This document shows positions 29,945-58,892 of a stretch of DNA of 64,000 nucleotides, in pieces (the first letter of the stretch is position 1; each line of letters starts with the position of its first letter). The stretch covers positions 186,001-250,000 of the forward strand of contig NZ_CP008887.1 in NCBI RefSeq assembly GCF_000769655.1. The letters are read 5' to 3'. The translations under genes and the position numbers were made by a program. This DNA comes from Thermococcus eurythermalis. Lineage in GTDB: Archaea; Methanobacteriota_B; Thermococci; Thermococcales; Thermococcaceae. The notes under the pieces were generated by a model that ran no database searches, had not been told where the DNA came from, and worked only from the letters and a program-made list of their open reading frames with translations.

Positions 29945-31225
29945 GCCTTTTATTGTGAAGCGCCCAACTCAAATCGCCCGGGGAGCACCGCCGAGGGCGG
30001 AGTCAATGAACTCGGGCGGGTTATTACCGTCCCGCCGACTCCTTCCTTTTTATTGCATTGACAGTGAGAGTCGGCTTCCCTCCTCCCAGCTTCATTGGAG
30101 GGCTTTCGGGGGGAACGGTGACTCCCCACATCTTCAAGGCTCTCAAGCGAATATTCCAACTCCCAACCACGTCCCTATCGGCTTCAAAACCACAATTCAA
30201 ACACTTCAAAATCCGGTGCCCATTCGGGCTTAATTTCTCTCCACATATCGGGCACAGAGAAGAAGTGTAAGCAGGGTTTACAAAAACGACTCTAACACCC
30301 TTCAGTTTGGCTTTGTATTTGATGATTGACTGGAGTTTGCGAAAACTCCACCTGTGAAGTCTCCCATTCATCCCAGCTGAATATCTAATCGAATCCCTGA
30401 TTTCAATCAAATCCTCTAAAGCAATCCCACCATACTTCTCCGCCAGCTCGATGATTTTATTGGCAAGCTTATGGTAAAGGTCGTTAAGCCTGTTCTTTTC
30501 CCTTCGCCCGTATTTTTCAAGGAGTTCTCTCCTCCTCTTTCCAGCCTTAAATTTCTTCTGGATTTTCCTTCTCTTCATGAAGTAACCTGTCCTAATCTCC
30601 CGCTCGTGGGTGATGATTTGAACAAACTCTCCATTAGGGAAGGAAAGCGTTACGTTATTCTCATTCAAATCCACTCCAACAAAGGCTTTCGGCTCTTTAA
30701 CCTCGACTTCCTTCGAGAAGACGACGTTTAGGAAGACTCCCTTCGATGTTCTCACTAACCACGCTTGACCAACCCCCCAGTTCTTGAACTTCTCGTGGTA
30801 TTTTGCGGGATAAAACTCTAACTGAACCCTCCCGCTTGGAGTGGAGAGTTTTACGGTCTTGTTCTCCAAGTCGAGTTTGAACAGGTGGTCGTCGAGCATA
30901 ATAACTTCTTTCTTGAAAACTGGTCTTCCCCTCGCTTTACCCTTCTTTTTCCTCTTCCTGAAGCTTTTAAAGATTGCAGTCGCCATCTGGCAGGCCGTGT
31001 AAAGGTAGTGACTTGGGAGTTCTGGATACTCTTTGCGAAGACTTTTGTAAGTTTCTTTTTTCAGCCTGTAGAAGCTTGTGGTGTTGTTTTCGAAAGCATA
31101 AGTGATGAGAAAGTTCACGATTTCACGATAAGTGGAGAAAAGGCATTCTAAACCCTCTGGAATTTCCCTAAGCTTGAATTTGGCAGTAAGTTTAATTGTT
31201 TCAAATGACATTGAAAACCACACAA
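29945..31225 (-). mobile_element. Solitary TnpB element (IS200/IS605-IS607 superfamily)
   Basis: A tnpB gene without a transposase partner. Boundaries are approximate. On the tnpB strand, the region after the stop is GC-rich and can fold: GGCGGG/CCCGCC (30015-30036) surrounds the stop codon and CCGCC-GAG-GGCGG follows near 29992-30000. This is where an omega/reRNA would be. The gene is closely similar to the tnpB of the complete IS607-type element at 56976-58157 but has no tnpA upstream. The opposite flank is a shared AT-rich promoter region. Confidence 0.6.
30024..31211 (-). CDS. tnpB: TnpB RNA-guided nuclease, stand-alone copy
   Basis: About 395 residues. The RuvC-like catalytic acids are present: Asp in VGVDLNENN, Glu in IALEDLIEI, Asp in EADRDVVGSWNI. 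A four-Cys zinc ribbon (CPICG...CLNCG) lies between the last two. Start ATG 31211 (MSFETIKL) corresponds to the start of the IS607 copy; an upstream in-frame codon would add four residues. TnpB cuts DNA under guidance from RNA made at the element's right end. The 3' tail differs from copy 2 after PPESP, so the two right ends are not the same. Confidence 0.9.
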   Translation of the reverse strand: MSFETIKLTAKFKLREIPEGLECLFSTYREIVNFLITYAFENNTTSFYRLKKETYKSLRKEYPELPSHYLYTACQMATAIFKSFRKRKKKGKARGRPVFKKEVIMLDDHLFKLDLENKTVKLSTPSGRVQLEFYPAKYHEKFKNWGVGQAWLVRTSKGVFLNVVFSKEVEVKEPKAFVGVDLNENNVTLSFPNGEFVQIITHEREIRTGYFMKRRKIQKKFKAGKRRRELLEKYGRREKNRLNDLYHKLANKIIELAEKYGGIALEDLIEIRDSIRYSAGMNGRLHRWSFRKLQSIIKYKAKLKGVRVVFVNPAYTSSLCPICGEKLSPNGHRILKCLNCGFEADRDVVGSWNIRLRALKMWGVTVPPESPPMKLGGGKPTLTVNAIKRKESAGR

Positions 31226-53627: not shown

Positions 53628-54695
53628 TTACCAAACAGGACTGTTTTTCTTTTGAGATTTCAATGAATTTAACCCCCACCAACCTATCACGAACGCCGAC
53701 GAGAAGTGAACGTCCAAACCTAACCCTTGAGCAAGTTCCCGCCCCAACTTCGAAGAACCTGCAGGATTAACCAGATAGACCTCAAAACCCCTCTTCAACG
53801 CCATAACAATCCCGTGTTCGAGAAGCTCCTTCTTGGCGAAATTTGAGGCCTTTCGATTCCCTTTTCTCGAATTTGTTGCCTTCCCATTTTTCCTCTTAAT
53901 CCTCTCCAAATCCTCAAAGAACACGACCCCAACACCATGATAAAACGCATAATCCAGAAGATGAGCGAGAGCCTTTAACCTCAAATCCCGAGCCCTCCTT
54001 TTCGAGAACCCCGGAGAATTAACTTCAGGAAAATGCTCAACCCTAACGTCCCGAATAATCCCCCTCTCATCGAGAATAACCATATTCACCCTGTCCGAAT
54101 TCAAATCAAATCCAGAGTAAAGCTTTCCATAAGCAGTCCTCCCGTAGTGTTTAAGATAAACCTCAAAAGGCACTTGAACATGCAGATAAACTTTTCCATT
54201 TCGCAGAACAACTTGAGCACCGTATTTTAATTTCTGAACATCAAAGATTACCGGAAGAAAATTCTTGCCTGTCTTCATCTTAAAGTTTAGCCATTCACCG
54301 TTCGAGCGAATTCTAACGTTTAACCCTTCAATCCTTACGTTCCTGTTCCCCTTCTCGTTTTCCTTAGGCTTGCTAATGAGGAATTTTGATTTCAAGTGAA
54401 TGTGCAGTGGATTTCCACCGTTTTGTTTTGCTCCCTTGAGAAGCATTTTCGCGTAATCCCACGCGCTGTCAGAATACCACCAGTTATTGAGAACCAGCCG
54501 GGAAACTTCCTTTACGCCTTCACTCTTTCTAATCCCCTTGAGCTGTAGCCTTATTGCGAGTTCAACGGCTCTTTTGAATTTTTCTGTCAGGAGAGCAAGT
54601 TTCAAGTAGTCTTCCGATGTTTTTGGTTCAAGCTTTGTCTTGATGGTTACGTAGTTTACTTCTGCTCGACGGATCGTTCGTGTTTTTCGAGCCAT
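53628..54695 (-). CDS. TnpB-like RuvC nuclease lacking the zinc ribbon
   Basis: A 355-residue TnpB/OrfB relative. The RuvC acids are present: D197 (SGFDLNS), E261 (VVFFEDLERIKRK) and D328 (LGLDVHFSSAF). Between E261 and D328, where TnpB has its four-Cys ribbon, this protein reads VNPAGSSKLGRELAQGLG with no Cys pair. It shares only the fold with the two TnpB copies elsewhere in the window. No transposase partner, and no foldable right end after its stop. Its start overlaps the RHH gene upstream by 40 nt, so they are translated together. This is either a derived stand-alone family or a domesticated nuclease. Confidence 0.8.
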   Translation of the reverse strand: MARKTRTIRRAEVNYVTIKTKLEPKTSEDYLKLALLTEKFKRAVELAIRLQLKGIRKSEGVKEVSRLVLNNWWYSDSAWDYAKMLLKGAKQNGGNPLHIHLKSKFLISKPKENEKGNRNVRIEGLNVRIRSNGEWLNFKMKTGKNFLPVIFDVQKLKYGAQVVLRNGKVYLHVQVPFEVYLKHYGRTAYGKLYSGFDLNSDRVNMVILDERGIIRDVRVEHFPEVNSPGFSKRRARDLRLKALAHLLDYAFYHGVGVVFFEDLERIKRKNGKATNSRKGNRKASNFAKKELLEHGIVMALKRGFEVYLVNPAGSSKLGRELAQGLGLDVHFSSAFVIGWWGLNSLKSQKKNSPVW

Positions 54696-54817
54696 AACTC
54701 AATAGCCTCCGTTATGGCCTTCCCGAGAGCTCCTTTTTTAACTCCATAAACGTCAAGGATTTTCTTTCGGAATTTGACTTCCAGTTCATCTGGAATTTTC
54801 ACTGTGATGACACCCAT
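54656..54817 (-). CDS. Ribbon-helix-helix (CopG-like) small protein
   Basis: A 53-residue protein starting MGVITVKIPDELEVKF, the beta-strand of an RHH DNA-binding protein, followed by two helices (VYGVKKGALGKAITEAIELW). ATG 54815-54817; RBS GGTGA upstream; the TATA box AAGTATTTAAG lies about 25 bp further, giving a short leader. The frame ends at TAA 54656 inside the TnpB-like gene. An RHH partner is what toxin-antitoxin and autorepressed operons use, so this protein may regulate the TnpB-like gene and the divergent RNA. Confidence 0.75.
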   Translation of the reverse strand: MGVITVKIPDELEVKFRKKILDVYGVKKGALGKAITEAIELWLEKHERSVEQK

Positions 54818-54872
54818 TGTATTCACCAAAATTCTTAAATACTTGTTTACTTAAATAGTTTTTGGCAATGAT

Positions 54873-55107
54873 GCCGGCCCTGTGAAGTCTGTGAGCCAGG
54901 CGAGGTGGAGGTCTGGTTGAGCCCTGTGGGTGTTCGGGCGACCCGTTCCGCCGTAGTGTGCTGAAAGAGAAGGAGAGTGGGCGGGGCGGTCTAAGTCCGG
55001 GCACCCCCGTAACTCGGGGAATGAATCCTCGTGTGTGAGTCTTGTGAACTCACGAAGGGGGACCCCGATGAGGATAACTCCCTGCCCTGAGCGGTGATGA
55101 GACCGGC
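54873..55107 (+). ncRNA. Putative GC-rich structured RNA, divergent from RHH/TnpB-like operon
   Basis: No open frame of note. A plus-strand TATA box (CTTAAATAG, 54850-54858) predicts a start near 54880. Foldable parts: AGCCAG (54894-54899) with CTGGTT (54913-54918); CCGCC (54948-54952) with GGCGG (54980-54984); a perfect hairpin CCCCG-TAACT-CGGGG (55005-55019); ATCCTC with GAGGAT closing a GTGAG/CTCAC hairpin; and the ends GCCGG (54873-54877) with CCGGC (55103-55107). The GC content stands out from the AT-rich promoter. It could be a guide RNA for the neighbouring TnpB-like protein, a lone element end, or an sRNA. Within its 3' part, CTGA (55087-55090) and TGATGA (55095-55100) resemble a D'/C' pair. 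Confidence 0.45.
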
Positions 55108-55117
55108 TTTCCCGAGG

Positions 55118-56886: not shown

Positions 56887-56973
56887 ACTCCCGGTTATAG
56901 TGGAGTGCCCGGGGTTTTAAAAAGTTTTGGTATATGCCATGTGCTCAGTGGTGACCGCTCTCATCACCGTTCT

Positions 56974-57021
56974 GGTTAGCCGTAACTTGTGTAAAGTTCG
57001 TAAACGTCGTTACGGCTAACC
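56974..57021 (-). ncRNA. Perfect hairpin at tnpB 3' end, putative omega/reRNA part
   Basis: On the tnpB strand, GGTTAGCCGTAAC (57009-57021) and GTTACGGCTAACC (56974-56986) are exact reverse complements, 13 bp with a 22-nt loop, and the stop codon of tnpB (56976-56978) lies in the second arm. A smaller GGTGA/TCACC hairpin follows. TnpB guide RNAs are made from this end of the gene, so this is probably part of the guide-RNA scaffold or the element end. Confidence 0.6.
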
Positions 57022-58157
57022 TTCCCCACTCCTGTCTTCATTGTGGGGCTTTCGGGGGGAACGGAAACTCCCCACATCTTCAGGGCCCTCAAACGGATAT
57101 TCCAACTTCCAATCACATCACGGTCGGCTTCAAACCCACAATTCGAACACTTCAAAACCCTGTGCCCATTCGGGCTTAATTTCCCCCCACATACCGGGCA
57201 CAGGGAAGAAGTATGAGCAGGATTCACGAAAACAACCTTAACCCCTCTCAGTTTGGCCTTGTATTCGATGATTGACTGAAGTTTGCGAAAACTCCACCTG
57301 TGAAGTCTCCCATTCATCTCAGCTGAATACCTAATCGACTCCCTAATTTCCGTTAAATCTTCGAGGGCGATTCCGCCGTATTTCTCCGCCACCTCAACGA
57401 TTTTATTGGCGAGCTTATGATAAAGGTCATTAAGCCTGTTCTTCTCCCTCTCACCGTATTTTTCGAGGAGTTTTTTCCTCCTCTTCCCACTCCTAATCTT
57501 CCGCTGGATTTTTCGTCTCTTCACGAAGTAGCCAGTCCTGATTTCACGCTCATGGGTTATGATTTGGAGAAACTCACCATTAGGGAGGGAAAGCGTTATG
57601 TTGTTCTCATTCAAATCCATACCAACAAAGGCTTTAGGCTCTTTAACCTCGACTTCCTTCGAGAAGACGACGTTTAGGAAGACTCCCTTCGATGTTCTCA
57701 CTAACCACGCTTGACCAACCTTCCAGTCCTTGAACTTCTCGTGGTATCTGGCAGGATAAAACTCCAACTGAATCCTCCCGCTTGGAGTGGAGAGTTTTAC
57801 GGTTTTGTTCTCCAAGTCGAGTTTGAACAGGTGGTCATCGAGCATAATAACTTCTTTTTTGAAAACTGGTCTTCCCCTCGCTTTACCCTTCTTTTTGCGT
57901 TTCCTAAAGCTTTTGAAGATTGCCGTCGCCATTTGACACCCCGTGTAAAGGTAATGGCTCGGTAACTCAGGATACTCCTTGCGAAGGCCCTTGTAAGTCT
58001 CCTTTTTCAGCCGGTAAAAGCTGGTGATGTTGTTCTCAAAAGCGTGAGTGATGAGAAAGTTCACGATTTCTCGATAAGTGGAGAAAAGGTCATCTAATCC
58101 GTCGGGTGTCCCCTTGAGTTTGAATTTGGCAGTGAGTTTAATCGTCTCGGAGGGCAT
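56976..58157 (-). CDS. tnpB: TnpB RNA-guided nuclease of the IS607-type element
   Basis: A 393-residue TnpB. RuvC acids D181 (VGMDLNENN), E266 (IALEDLTEI) and D345 (EADRDVIGSWN); zinc ribbon cysteines C320, C323, C337 and C340. All key residues intact. Start ATG 58157 (MPSETIKL) overlaps the tnpA stop by 20 nt. It is very close in sequence to the solitary copy at 30024 except in the last 20 residues, which lie in the 3' hairpin. Confidence 0.95.
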   Translation of the reverse strand: MPSETIKLTAKFKLKGTPDGLDDLFSTYREIVNFLITHAFENNITSFYRLKKETYKGLRKEYPELPSHYLYTGCQMATAIFKSFRKRKKKGKARGRPVFKKEVIMLDDHLFKLDLENKTVKLSTPSGRIQLEFYPARYHEKFKDWKVGQAWLVRTSKGVFLNVVFSKEVEVKEPKAFVGMDLNENNITLSLPNGEFLQIITHEREIRTGYFVKRRKIQRKIRSGKRRKKLLEKYGEREKNRLNDLYHKLANKIVEVAEKYGGIALEDLTEIRESIRYSAEMNGRLHRWSFRKLQSIIEYKAKLRGVKVVFVNPAHTSSLCPVCGGKLSPNGHRVLKCSNCGFEADRDVIGSWNIRLRALKMWGVSVPPESPTMKTGVGKVSRNDVYELYTSYG

Positions 58158-58746
58158 TCTTTACCGCCTCGACGAGGCGTTTTTTCTTGTGAGAACGCAT
58201 ACCGTAAAGCTTTCCGGCGAAGGAAGTTACGATTGCCAACAAGTCTTCCACGAGTTCCTTTTCCGGTGTTTTCTCCTCATCGTCGAAAATTACTTCAATC
58301 TCAACACCGTGAGAGTTGAAGTATTGTTCGAGGTATTTGAAGCCGAAGCGGGTAAGCCTGTCCCGGTAAGTTATGACGACTTTCGTAACTTCCCCGCTTT
58401 CGACGAGTTTGAGAAGCCGTCTTAATCCCTTTCTGTTCTCGTTCAATCCAGAGGAAATGTCCGTGATGATTTTGGCCACTTGGTATCCTTTGGACGAACA
58501 GTAATTCTTGAGGTATTCGACTTGCCTTTCCAAGTCCTCTTTTTGGTCTCGGCTTGAGACTCTGGCATAAATAACGACCTTATCAGGGATTTTGCCCTCA
58601 AGAATTCTCTTGATTTCACTTTCGGGGATACGGTATTCTTTGCCAATCCGATACGCTTTAATCTCACCGGATTTTATCTTCCTAATCAATGTTGGCTTGC
58701 TGATACCTAAGAGTTGTGAGGCTTTGCCCGTCCGATAAAGCCTCAT
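58138..58746 (-). CDS. tnpA: IS607-type serine recombinase (TnpA)
   Basis: A 202-residue protein. An N-terminal MerR-like helix-turn-helix (GKASQLLGISKPTLIRKI) precedes the serine-recombinase domain with catalytic S64 (VVIYARVSSRDQ), and the arginines of YRDRLTRFGF. Start ATG 58746 (MRLYRTG) has GGTGGAG 6 nt upstream. IS607 enzymes catalyse excision and insertion with little target specificity. Confidence 0.94.
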   Translation of the reverse strand: MRLYRTGKASQLLGISKPTLIRKIKSGEIKAYRIGKEYRIPESEIKRILEGKIPDKVVIYARVSSRDQKEDLERQVEYLKNYCSSKGYQVAKIITDISSGLNENRKGLRRLLKLVESGEVTKVVITYRDRLTRFGFKYLEQYFNSHGVEIEVIFDDEEKTPEKELVEDLLAIVTSFAGKLYGMRSHKKKRLVEAVKNALRDD

Positions 58747-58892
58747 ATCTTGCTCCACCAAAACAAGCTATGAAATGAAAATATTTAAACTTTACGCTTT
58801 TAACCGTTTATGAAACAGCCCCTCAGGAGGGCTTGGGCGTCATCATCGCTGGGCTTAAAAACTCACGAGCCCTTTTAACCCTGGTGGTTGAG

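What the first reader, a model, noticed from the sequence alone, without database searches (positions are those of the whole stretch)
53628..54817. RHH protein coupled to a zinc-ribbon-less TnpB-like nuclease
A 53-residue RHH gene (54656-54817) overlaps, by 40 nt, a 355-residue TnpB-like gene that keeps the RuvC acids D197, E261 and D328 but has lost the four-Cys ribbon. It has no transposase and no foldable right end after its stop. In a genome with two ordinary TnpB copies this is a distinct lineage, organised like an autoregulated operon. It might be a domesticated RNA-guided nuclease, a regulator or a defence module.
Basis: partly seen in the sequence, partly recalled or inferred. Interest (0 to 1): 0.7.

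Follow-up and report, generated by a model that had tools for sequence, protein, structure and literature searches.

The report
Archaeal TnpB element with left-end RNA
This is a small jumping DNA element of heat-loving archaea that carries a tiny repressor-like gene, a TnpB-like nuclease without its zinc finger and, at the opposite end from where such guide RNAs usually lie, a conserved structured RNA that may be the nuclease's guide.

Summary
The genes are real and at the stated coordinates: a 53-aa RHH-type frame overlaps by 40 nt a 355-aa TnpB-like gene with D197, E261 and D328 and no zinc ribbon. The unit is not domesticated. The window copy fills 53631-55066. Fourteen places in eleven Thermococcales genomes (three genera) have sharp ends and mostly unrelated flanks; two interrupt coding genes, and the window's empty site exists in relatives with a single GG, the IS607 overlap dinucleotide. 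It is a TnpA-less, IS607-like element. RHH-tnpB operons also occur with ordinary zinc-ribbon TnpBs in Thermococcales (63 of 75 distinct loci of this RHH family precede a tnpB), so the pairing is general, not unique. The new finding lies upstream of RHH: a ~203-nt, GC-rich, covarying structured RNA (54864-55066) on the strand opposite the genes, with a divergent promoter motif in every copy, ending at the left end. The right end, where TnpB guide RNAs normally lie, holds only the end of the ORF. All nine independent targets have a C right of the GG. I infer, not prove, that this RNA is the nuclease's guide RNA, relocated to the left end in antisense, with RHH repressing the shared promoter.

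The parts
53631..55066 (-). Whole mobile element, 1436 bp, GG at both ends
   Evidence: Homology block with unrelated flanks; empty site with one GG
54656..54817 (-). RHH (CopG/Arc-like) gene, 53 aa
   Evidence: Frame intact in all 14 places, dN/dS about 0.05; relatives hit RHH_6, RHH_1, Arc-like repressor
53628..54695 (-). Zinc-ribbon-less TnpB-like gene, 355 aa; the stop codon comes from the flank and the last ~10 codons are frame-shifted by a 13-nt deletion relative to other copies
   Evidence: TIGR01765/TIGR01766; D197, E261, D328 invariant; right-end alignment
54864..55066 (+). Structured left-end RNA (candidate guide-RNA scaffold), antisense to the genes
54924..55009 (+). Long rod helix of that RNA (28 pairs)
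   Evidence: 97.9% of cells paired, double changes in 4 pairs
55016..55066 (+). Terminal hairpin of that RNA, closing at the left end GACCCC
54818..54865 (.). Divergent promoter region: CCAAAA-n-TATTTAAG toward RHH/tnpB and CCAAAA-n-CTTAAATA toward the RNA, each 22 nt before a GG
   Evidence: 12/12 copies on the RNA side, four with one-base variants; 10/12 exact on the gene side
55067..55086 (+). Left flank that would become the guide (inferred)
   Evidence: Directly follows the RNA; no second match in the genome with up to 3 mismatches
53631..53632 (.). Right GG core; the host base after it is C in the empty site (mutated in the window copy)

Best explanation
A TnpA-less IS607-like mobile element of Thermococcales. 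SHOWN by sequence comparison: it sits at GG with one GG in the empty site, keeps an RHH gene and a zinc-ribbon-less TnpB gene under purifying selection, and encodes at its left end a conserved, covarying structured RNA on the opposite strand behind a promoter-like motif. INFERRED: this RNA is transcribed leftward through the left end into the flank, so that a ~200-nt scaffold is followed by a guide copied from the left flank. The TnpB-like nuclease binds it, recognises 5'-YGCC on the RNA strand (right flank plus core) as target-adjacent motif, and cuts the empty site after excision or on a sister chromosome, so that the element is kept, as proposed for other TnpBs. The RHH protein represses the shared divergent promoter. 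Movement is provided in trans by an IS607-type serine recombinase.
For: Mobility and GG core: with PMC4058570. Serine recombinase in 10 of 11 carriers; nearest plasmid relative sits behind an IS607 TnpA. Selection. RNA: conserved, GC 0.56-0.63 against 0.41-0.49 in the element's ORFs; consensus fold -82 against -55 kcal/mol on the gene strand; z -2.98 against -0.94; G-U to C-A cells 101:9 in the 5' domain and rod; covariation 0/500 shuffles. Divergent promoter and no terminator-like T-run. Right end almost unstructured and decayed in several copies, while ordinary RHH-TnpB elements of the tnp37 group keep a GC-rich block after the stop. C right of GG at 9/9 independent sites.
Against: No transcript or binding data. 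The conserved C may be a recombinase preference. One genome of 11 (a draft) shows no serine recombinase. D328 is absent in the bacterial relatives aligned, so catalysis is uncertain. No operator palindrome is significant. The terminal hairpin alone shows no strand preference (7 G-U against 8 C-A).
Confidence: 0.5

Rival explanations
1. Same mobile element, but the left-end RNA is a regulatory RNA (for example control of the element's own expression or excision), and the true guide RNA is the 3' part of the tnpB transcript, as in other TnpBs.
For: TnpB is known to process its own mRNA (PMC10278001, abstract); Thermus ribbon-less elements have a hairpin in the ORF end and a conserved left flank; left flank base is C at most sites here too.
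Against: Right end weakly structured and partly deleted in several copies; no clear synonymous constraint at the ORF end; conserved target base lies on the right.
Confidence: 0.3
2. A decaying TnpB element without present function; the RNA is only a transposon end.
For: The window copy has lost 13 nt near its right end and its last codons are shifted; TnpB is broken in L020, L021, L086 and L087.
Against: dN/dS 0.03-0.14 for TnpB and up to 0.13 for RHH; RNA conserved and covarying across three genera with RNA-type G-U asymmetry.
Confidence: 0.12
3. Domesticated RNA-guided regulator or defence module.
For: RHH and TnpB-like genes form a tight pair without TnpA; acids conserved.
Against: Mobile at many sites with empty sites elsewhere, patchy (5 of 37 same-genus genomes), no PADLOC hit, no second genomic target for the putative guide.
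Confidence: 0.04

Closest known systems
IS607 family (serine TnpA + TnpB; RAGATH-18-type reRNA, PMC11061315)
   Same: GG overlap dinucleotide, no target duplication, TnpB gene; nearest plasmid relative is in an IS607 element
   Different: No TnpA (RHH in its place); candidate RNA at the left end on the other strand instead of downstream of tnpB; no AG-rich motif at the left end
Zinc-ribbon-less 'IS200/IS605 family accessory protein TnpB-related' family (TIGR01765/TIGR01766; Thermus, Peptoclostridium)
   Same: N-terminal domain, RuvC motifs I and II with DxNxD, no ribbon, gene runs to the right end; profile match 99%
   Different: Thermococcales keep D328 where the bacterial ones aligned have S or N; bacterial proteins are longer (about 500 aa); no RHH gene seen there
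Ordinary Thermococcales RHH-TnpB elements (groups tnp37 and tnpW)
   Same: Same RHH family directly upstream of tnpB, no TnpA
   Different: Zinc ribbon present, 1-2 nt overlap; no left-end RNA found by model R1 in the four loci tested
IscB elements
   Same: RNA at the 5' side of the gene, guide from the left flank (from general knowledge)
   Different: Here the RNA is on the opposite strand, and the protein is TnpB-like, not IscB
TldR
   Same: TnpB-derived, small-protein neighbourhood, possible regulatory role (from general knowledge)
   Different: TldRs are nuclease-dead; here the three acids are conserved and the element is mobile

Membership tests
IS607 family element | Insertion at a GG overlap dinucleotide without target duplication | tested here: met
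   Empty site with one GG; coding frames restored with one GG in L087 and L090
IS607 family element | Serine transposase TnpA in the element | tested here: not met
   RHH stands in its place; at most a non-autonomous IS607-like element
RNA-guided TnpB | RuvC acids D, E, D | tested here: met
   D197, E261, D328 invariant in 9 copies; activity itself untested
RNA-guided TnpB | Zinc ribbon between RuvC II and III | tested here: not met
   No ribbon in any copy; no TNB domain hit
RNA-guided TnpB | Structured reRNA at the right end with guide from the right flank | tested here: not met
   ORF fills the right end, weak structure; structured RNA at the left end instead
TIGR01765 TnpB-related family | N-terminal model above curated cut-off | tested here: met
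   79.2 bits against 47.25
RHH (CopG/Arc) DNA-binding proteins | Profile match | tested here: inconclusive
   No hit for the window protein itself; weak hits for relatives to RHH_6, RHH_1, Arc-like
RHH (CopG/Arc) DNA-binding proteins | Beta-helix-helix fold | tested here: inconclusive
   Prediction shows two helices at modest confidence, strand not seen in the monomer
TldR (nuclease-dead TnpB repressor) | RuvC acids lost, fixed regulatory target | tested here: not met
   Acids kept; putative guide has no second genomic match

The most novel reading that the evidence does not exclude
A lineage of TnpB-like nucleases whose guide RNA has moved to the left end of the element, is transcribed divergently from its own promoter on the other strand, and takes its guide from the left flank with the target-adjacent motif on the right, under control of an RHH repressor that shares the promoter.
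Probability: 0.45. Interest if true: 0.8.

Novelty: new variant of a known kind. Interest (0 to 1): 0.6.

Why it matters
TnpB guide RNAs are described at the right end of their elements, overlapping or following the gene. A left-end, opposite-strand guide RNA would show that RNA and nuclease can be uncoupled and re-sited, as must have happened on the way to CRISPR type V systems, and would give a compact heat-stable candidate enzyme lacking the zinc ribbon. Independently, the recurrent RHH-tnpB operon in Thermococcales suggests that TnpB expression is commonly controlled by a dedicated small DNA-binding protein in these archaea.

Tried and rejected
Domestication or defence (rejected: mobile, empty sites, no PADLOC hit). 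IS200/IS605-type origin (disfavoured: one GG in the empty site; a Y1 transposase match in only 3 of the 5 carrier genomes searched). Operator palindromes upstream of RHH: 0 of 10 ribbon-less regions below p 0.05; a GTATT/AATAC-type word is frequent in all three groups, but a variant also occurs in 2 of 4 controls without RHH. Synonymous constraint at the ORF end: not clear. Structure prediction of the TnpB-like protein: poor (pLDDT 41); RuvC and Cas12f matches only suggestive. No relevant sequence match in solved structures for TnpB. Viral contigs and phages: nothing. The genome-contig scan found only two Thermococci copies. Rfam lists no family inside 54818-55063; the only matches touching the RNA's end are C/D sRNA models at 55064-55117. 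Literature searches listed no paper whose title or abstract describes an RHH-TnpB pair or a left-end reRNA.

Full report
Observation. The two reading frames exist as described: RHH-type frame 54656-54817 (-) and TnpB-like frame 53628-54695 (-), overlapping by 40 nt. The TnpB-like protein matches NCBIfam TIGR01765 above its cut-off and TIGR01766 0.1 bit below it, has no Pfam hit, and in 9 full-length Thermococcales copies D197, E261 and D328 are invariant while no cysteine ribbon exists. The host genome (2.13 Mb, Thermococcus-like) has 16 TNB-domain matches, 14 of them above the cut-off, more than the two stated.

Mobile element. The same unit was found in five same-genus genomes and in six genomes of two further genera of the family: 14 places in 11 genomes. 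Two of the three places in genome G025 end at contig edges and might be parts of one copy. Nucleotide alignment shows a homologous block with sharp ends and mostly unrelated flanks; L084 and L085 share one site, and L017 and L088, of two genera, share another. Left ends read GGGGTC, right ends usually CAGTTTnGnTAGG, followed by the host base C. Some copies interrupt genes: L087 within trpB, L090 within a methyltransferase gene, L089 near the end of a phosphatase-type gene (gene names are my reading of the translated flanks). Joined flanks of the window copy match uninterrupted sites in many Thermococcus genomes, with a single GG. This is the IS607 signature; Boocock and Rice give GG as the overlap dinucleotide for IS607 (PMC4058570). 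Serine recombinase genes occur in 10 of 11 carriers (non-carriers were not surveyed). The closest plasmid relative, in Peptoclostridium, lies downstream of an IS607 transposase. The unit is therefore best read as a TnpA-less IS607-like element moved in trans. Its TnpB stop codon in the window comes from the flank. Two places in genome G025 share a 1-nt frameshift and are 93% identical, which suggests, without proving, that the element moved after its tnpB was broken.

The RHH gene. Its frame is intact in all places, also where TnpB is broken (L020, L021, L086, L087), with dN/dS median 0.046 against 0.078 for TnpB. A profile of the RHH family finds it in 40 of 94 Thermococcales genomes. After removing duplicates, 63 of 75 distinct loci precede a tnpB: 12 ribbon-less, 32 of an ordinary zinc-ribbon family (tnp37; one is a remnant) and 19 of an IS607-type zinc-ribbon family (tnpW). 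The ordinary ones mostly overlap by 1-2 nt, the ribbon-less by 28-37 nt at profile level. RHH and a serine TnpA appear to exclude each other: only one locus of the set has a serine-TnpA match, on the other strand and more than 1 kb away. So the pair is general in Thermococcales and does not define the ribbon-less lineage. Members of the RHH family hit RHH_6, RHH_1 and an Arc-like repressor model weakly. An autorepressor role fits but was not demonstrated; no operator palindrome was significant in the ribbon-less group.

The left-end RNA. Between the left end and the RHH promoter lie about 203 nt. In 12 aligned copies they are strongly conserved although TnpB synonymous sites are near saturation between genera, and GC-rich (0.56-0.63) against the element's own ORFs (0.41-0.49), even in carriers with AT-rich flanks. 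The consensus fold is much better on the strand opposite to the genes: -82.4 against -55.2 kcal/mol (the gene-strand alignment is 45 columns longer), alignment z -6.9 (the gene strand reached -6.2), single-sequence z -2.98 against -0.94. In the 5' domain and the rod, cells that are not Watson-Crick are G-U on that strand 101 times and C-A 9 times (part of the G-U cells are invariant pairs), as expected of an RNA read from that strand; the terminal hairpin shows no preference. Pair counting gives 96.5% standard cells, 9 pairs with changes on both sides, and a covariation score that none of 500 shuffles reached and that falls on sliding. A promoter motif CCAAAA-n-CTTAAATA stands 22 nt before the first paired GG on that strand in 12/12 copies (four with a one-base variant of CCAAAA; 21 nt in L086), mirrored by CCAAAA-n-TATTTAAG 22 nt before GGTGAATACA-ATG on the gene strand in 10/12. 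No T-run longer than 4 lies in the RNA. Rfam shows no family within it. Model R1 finds it in the carriers tested but not in four loci of the other two RHH-TnpB groups or five bacterial ones, and the left-end DNA was found only in carriers of the element.

Why it may be the guide RNA. The structure runs to the last base of the left end, so transcription would continue into the left flank, giving scaffold plus 3' guide, the order used by TnpB and Cas12. The right end shows only weak structure and is partly deleted in several copies, while the ordinary tnp37 elements have a conserved GC-rich block after the stop, ending at the junction. Among nine independent sites the base after GG on the right is always C and the next is a purine in eight, i.e. 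5'-YGCC before the putative target on the RNA strand; by chance nine of nine would be rare (about 1e-5). In Thermus ribbon-less elements the conserved flank is GGAGG on the left, with a hairpin in the ORF end, which resembles the AGGAG TAM next to the left end of IS607 TnpB systems (PMC11061315); the Thermococcales lineage thus looks reversed. The putative guide of the window copy has no second match in the genome, in line with self-site targeting and against a TldR-like regulatory guide.

Limits. The conserved C may reflect recombinase preference. Catalysis is uncertain: the bacterial relatives aligned lack D328, and D201 is invariant in both groups, so the third acid could be displaced. The hhalign comparison with ordinary TnpBs aligned only the first RuvC motif, so the placing of D328 rests on my reading of the motif. 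Structure prediction was poor. No transcript data were available, and the key work on TnpB diversity (Altae-Tran and colleagues) was not in the library, so priority of parts of this could not be checked.

Noticed in passing
55064-55117 (+); 56943-56981 (-); L017/L088 insertion site: Several insertions lie at or in C/D box sRNA-like sequences: an sR47-like sRNA at the window element's left edge (33 bits, below its cut-off of 40), an sR44-like half next to the window's IS607 copy (23 bits, below cut-off), and a C/D-like target GATGACGAAACC-GG-CACTGGCTGA shared by two genera.
   Followed up: partly
L034, L035, L132, L134; L036; L175: The same RHH family also precedes a ~590-aa protein (MTRLEDTINFIPANEYNK...), a large primase-like ORF on a small replicon (L036), and starts a 401-aa frame on a 3.4-kb contig (L175).
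   Followed up: no
L107 1125-4000: In an Ammonifex plasmid an iscB gene stands directly upstream of a ribbon-less TnpB-related gene.
   Followed up: no
56976-58790 and 30075-31211: The window holds an IS607-type element with serine TnpA overlapping an ordinary zinc-ribbon TnpB, and a related TnpB copy without TnpA or RHH upstream.
   Followed up: partly
L106, L179-L187: Thermus thermophilus ribbon-less TnpB elements end about 5 nt after the ORF stop and have a ~142-nt noncoding left end; their left flanks share GGAGG and their right ends CCAGG.
   Followed up: partly
L020, L021: Two places in genome G025 share the same 1-nt deletion in tnpB yet differ by 7%, while RHH and the left-end region stay intact.
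   Followed up: no
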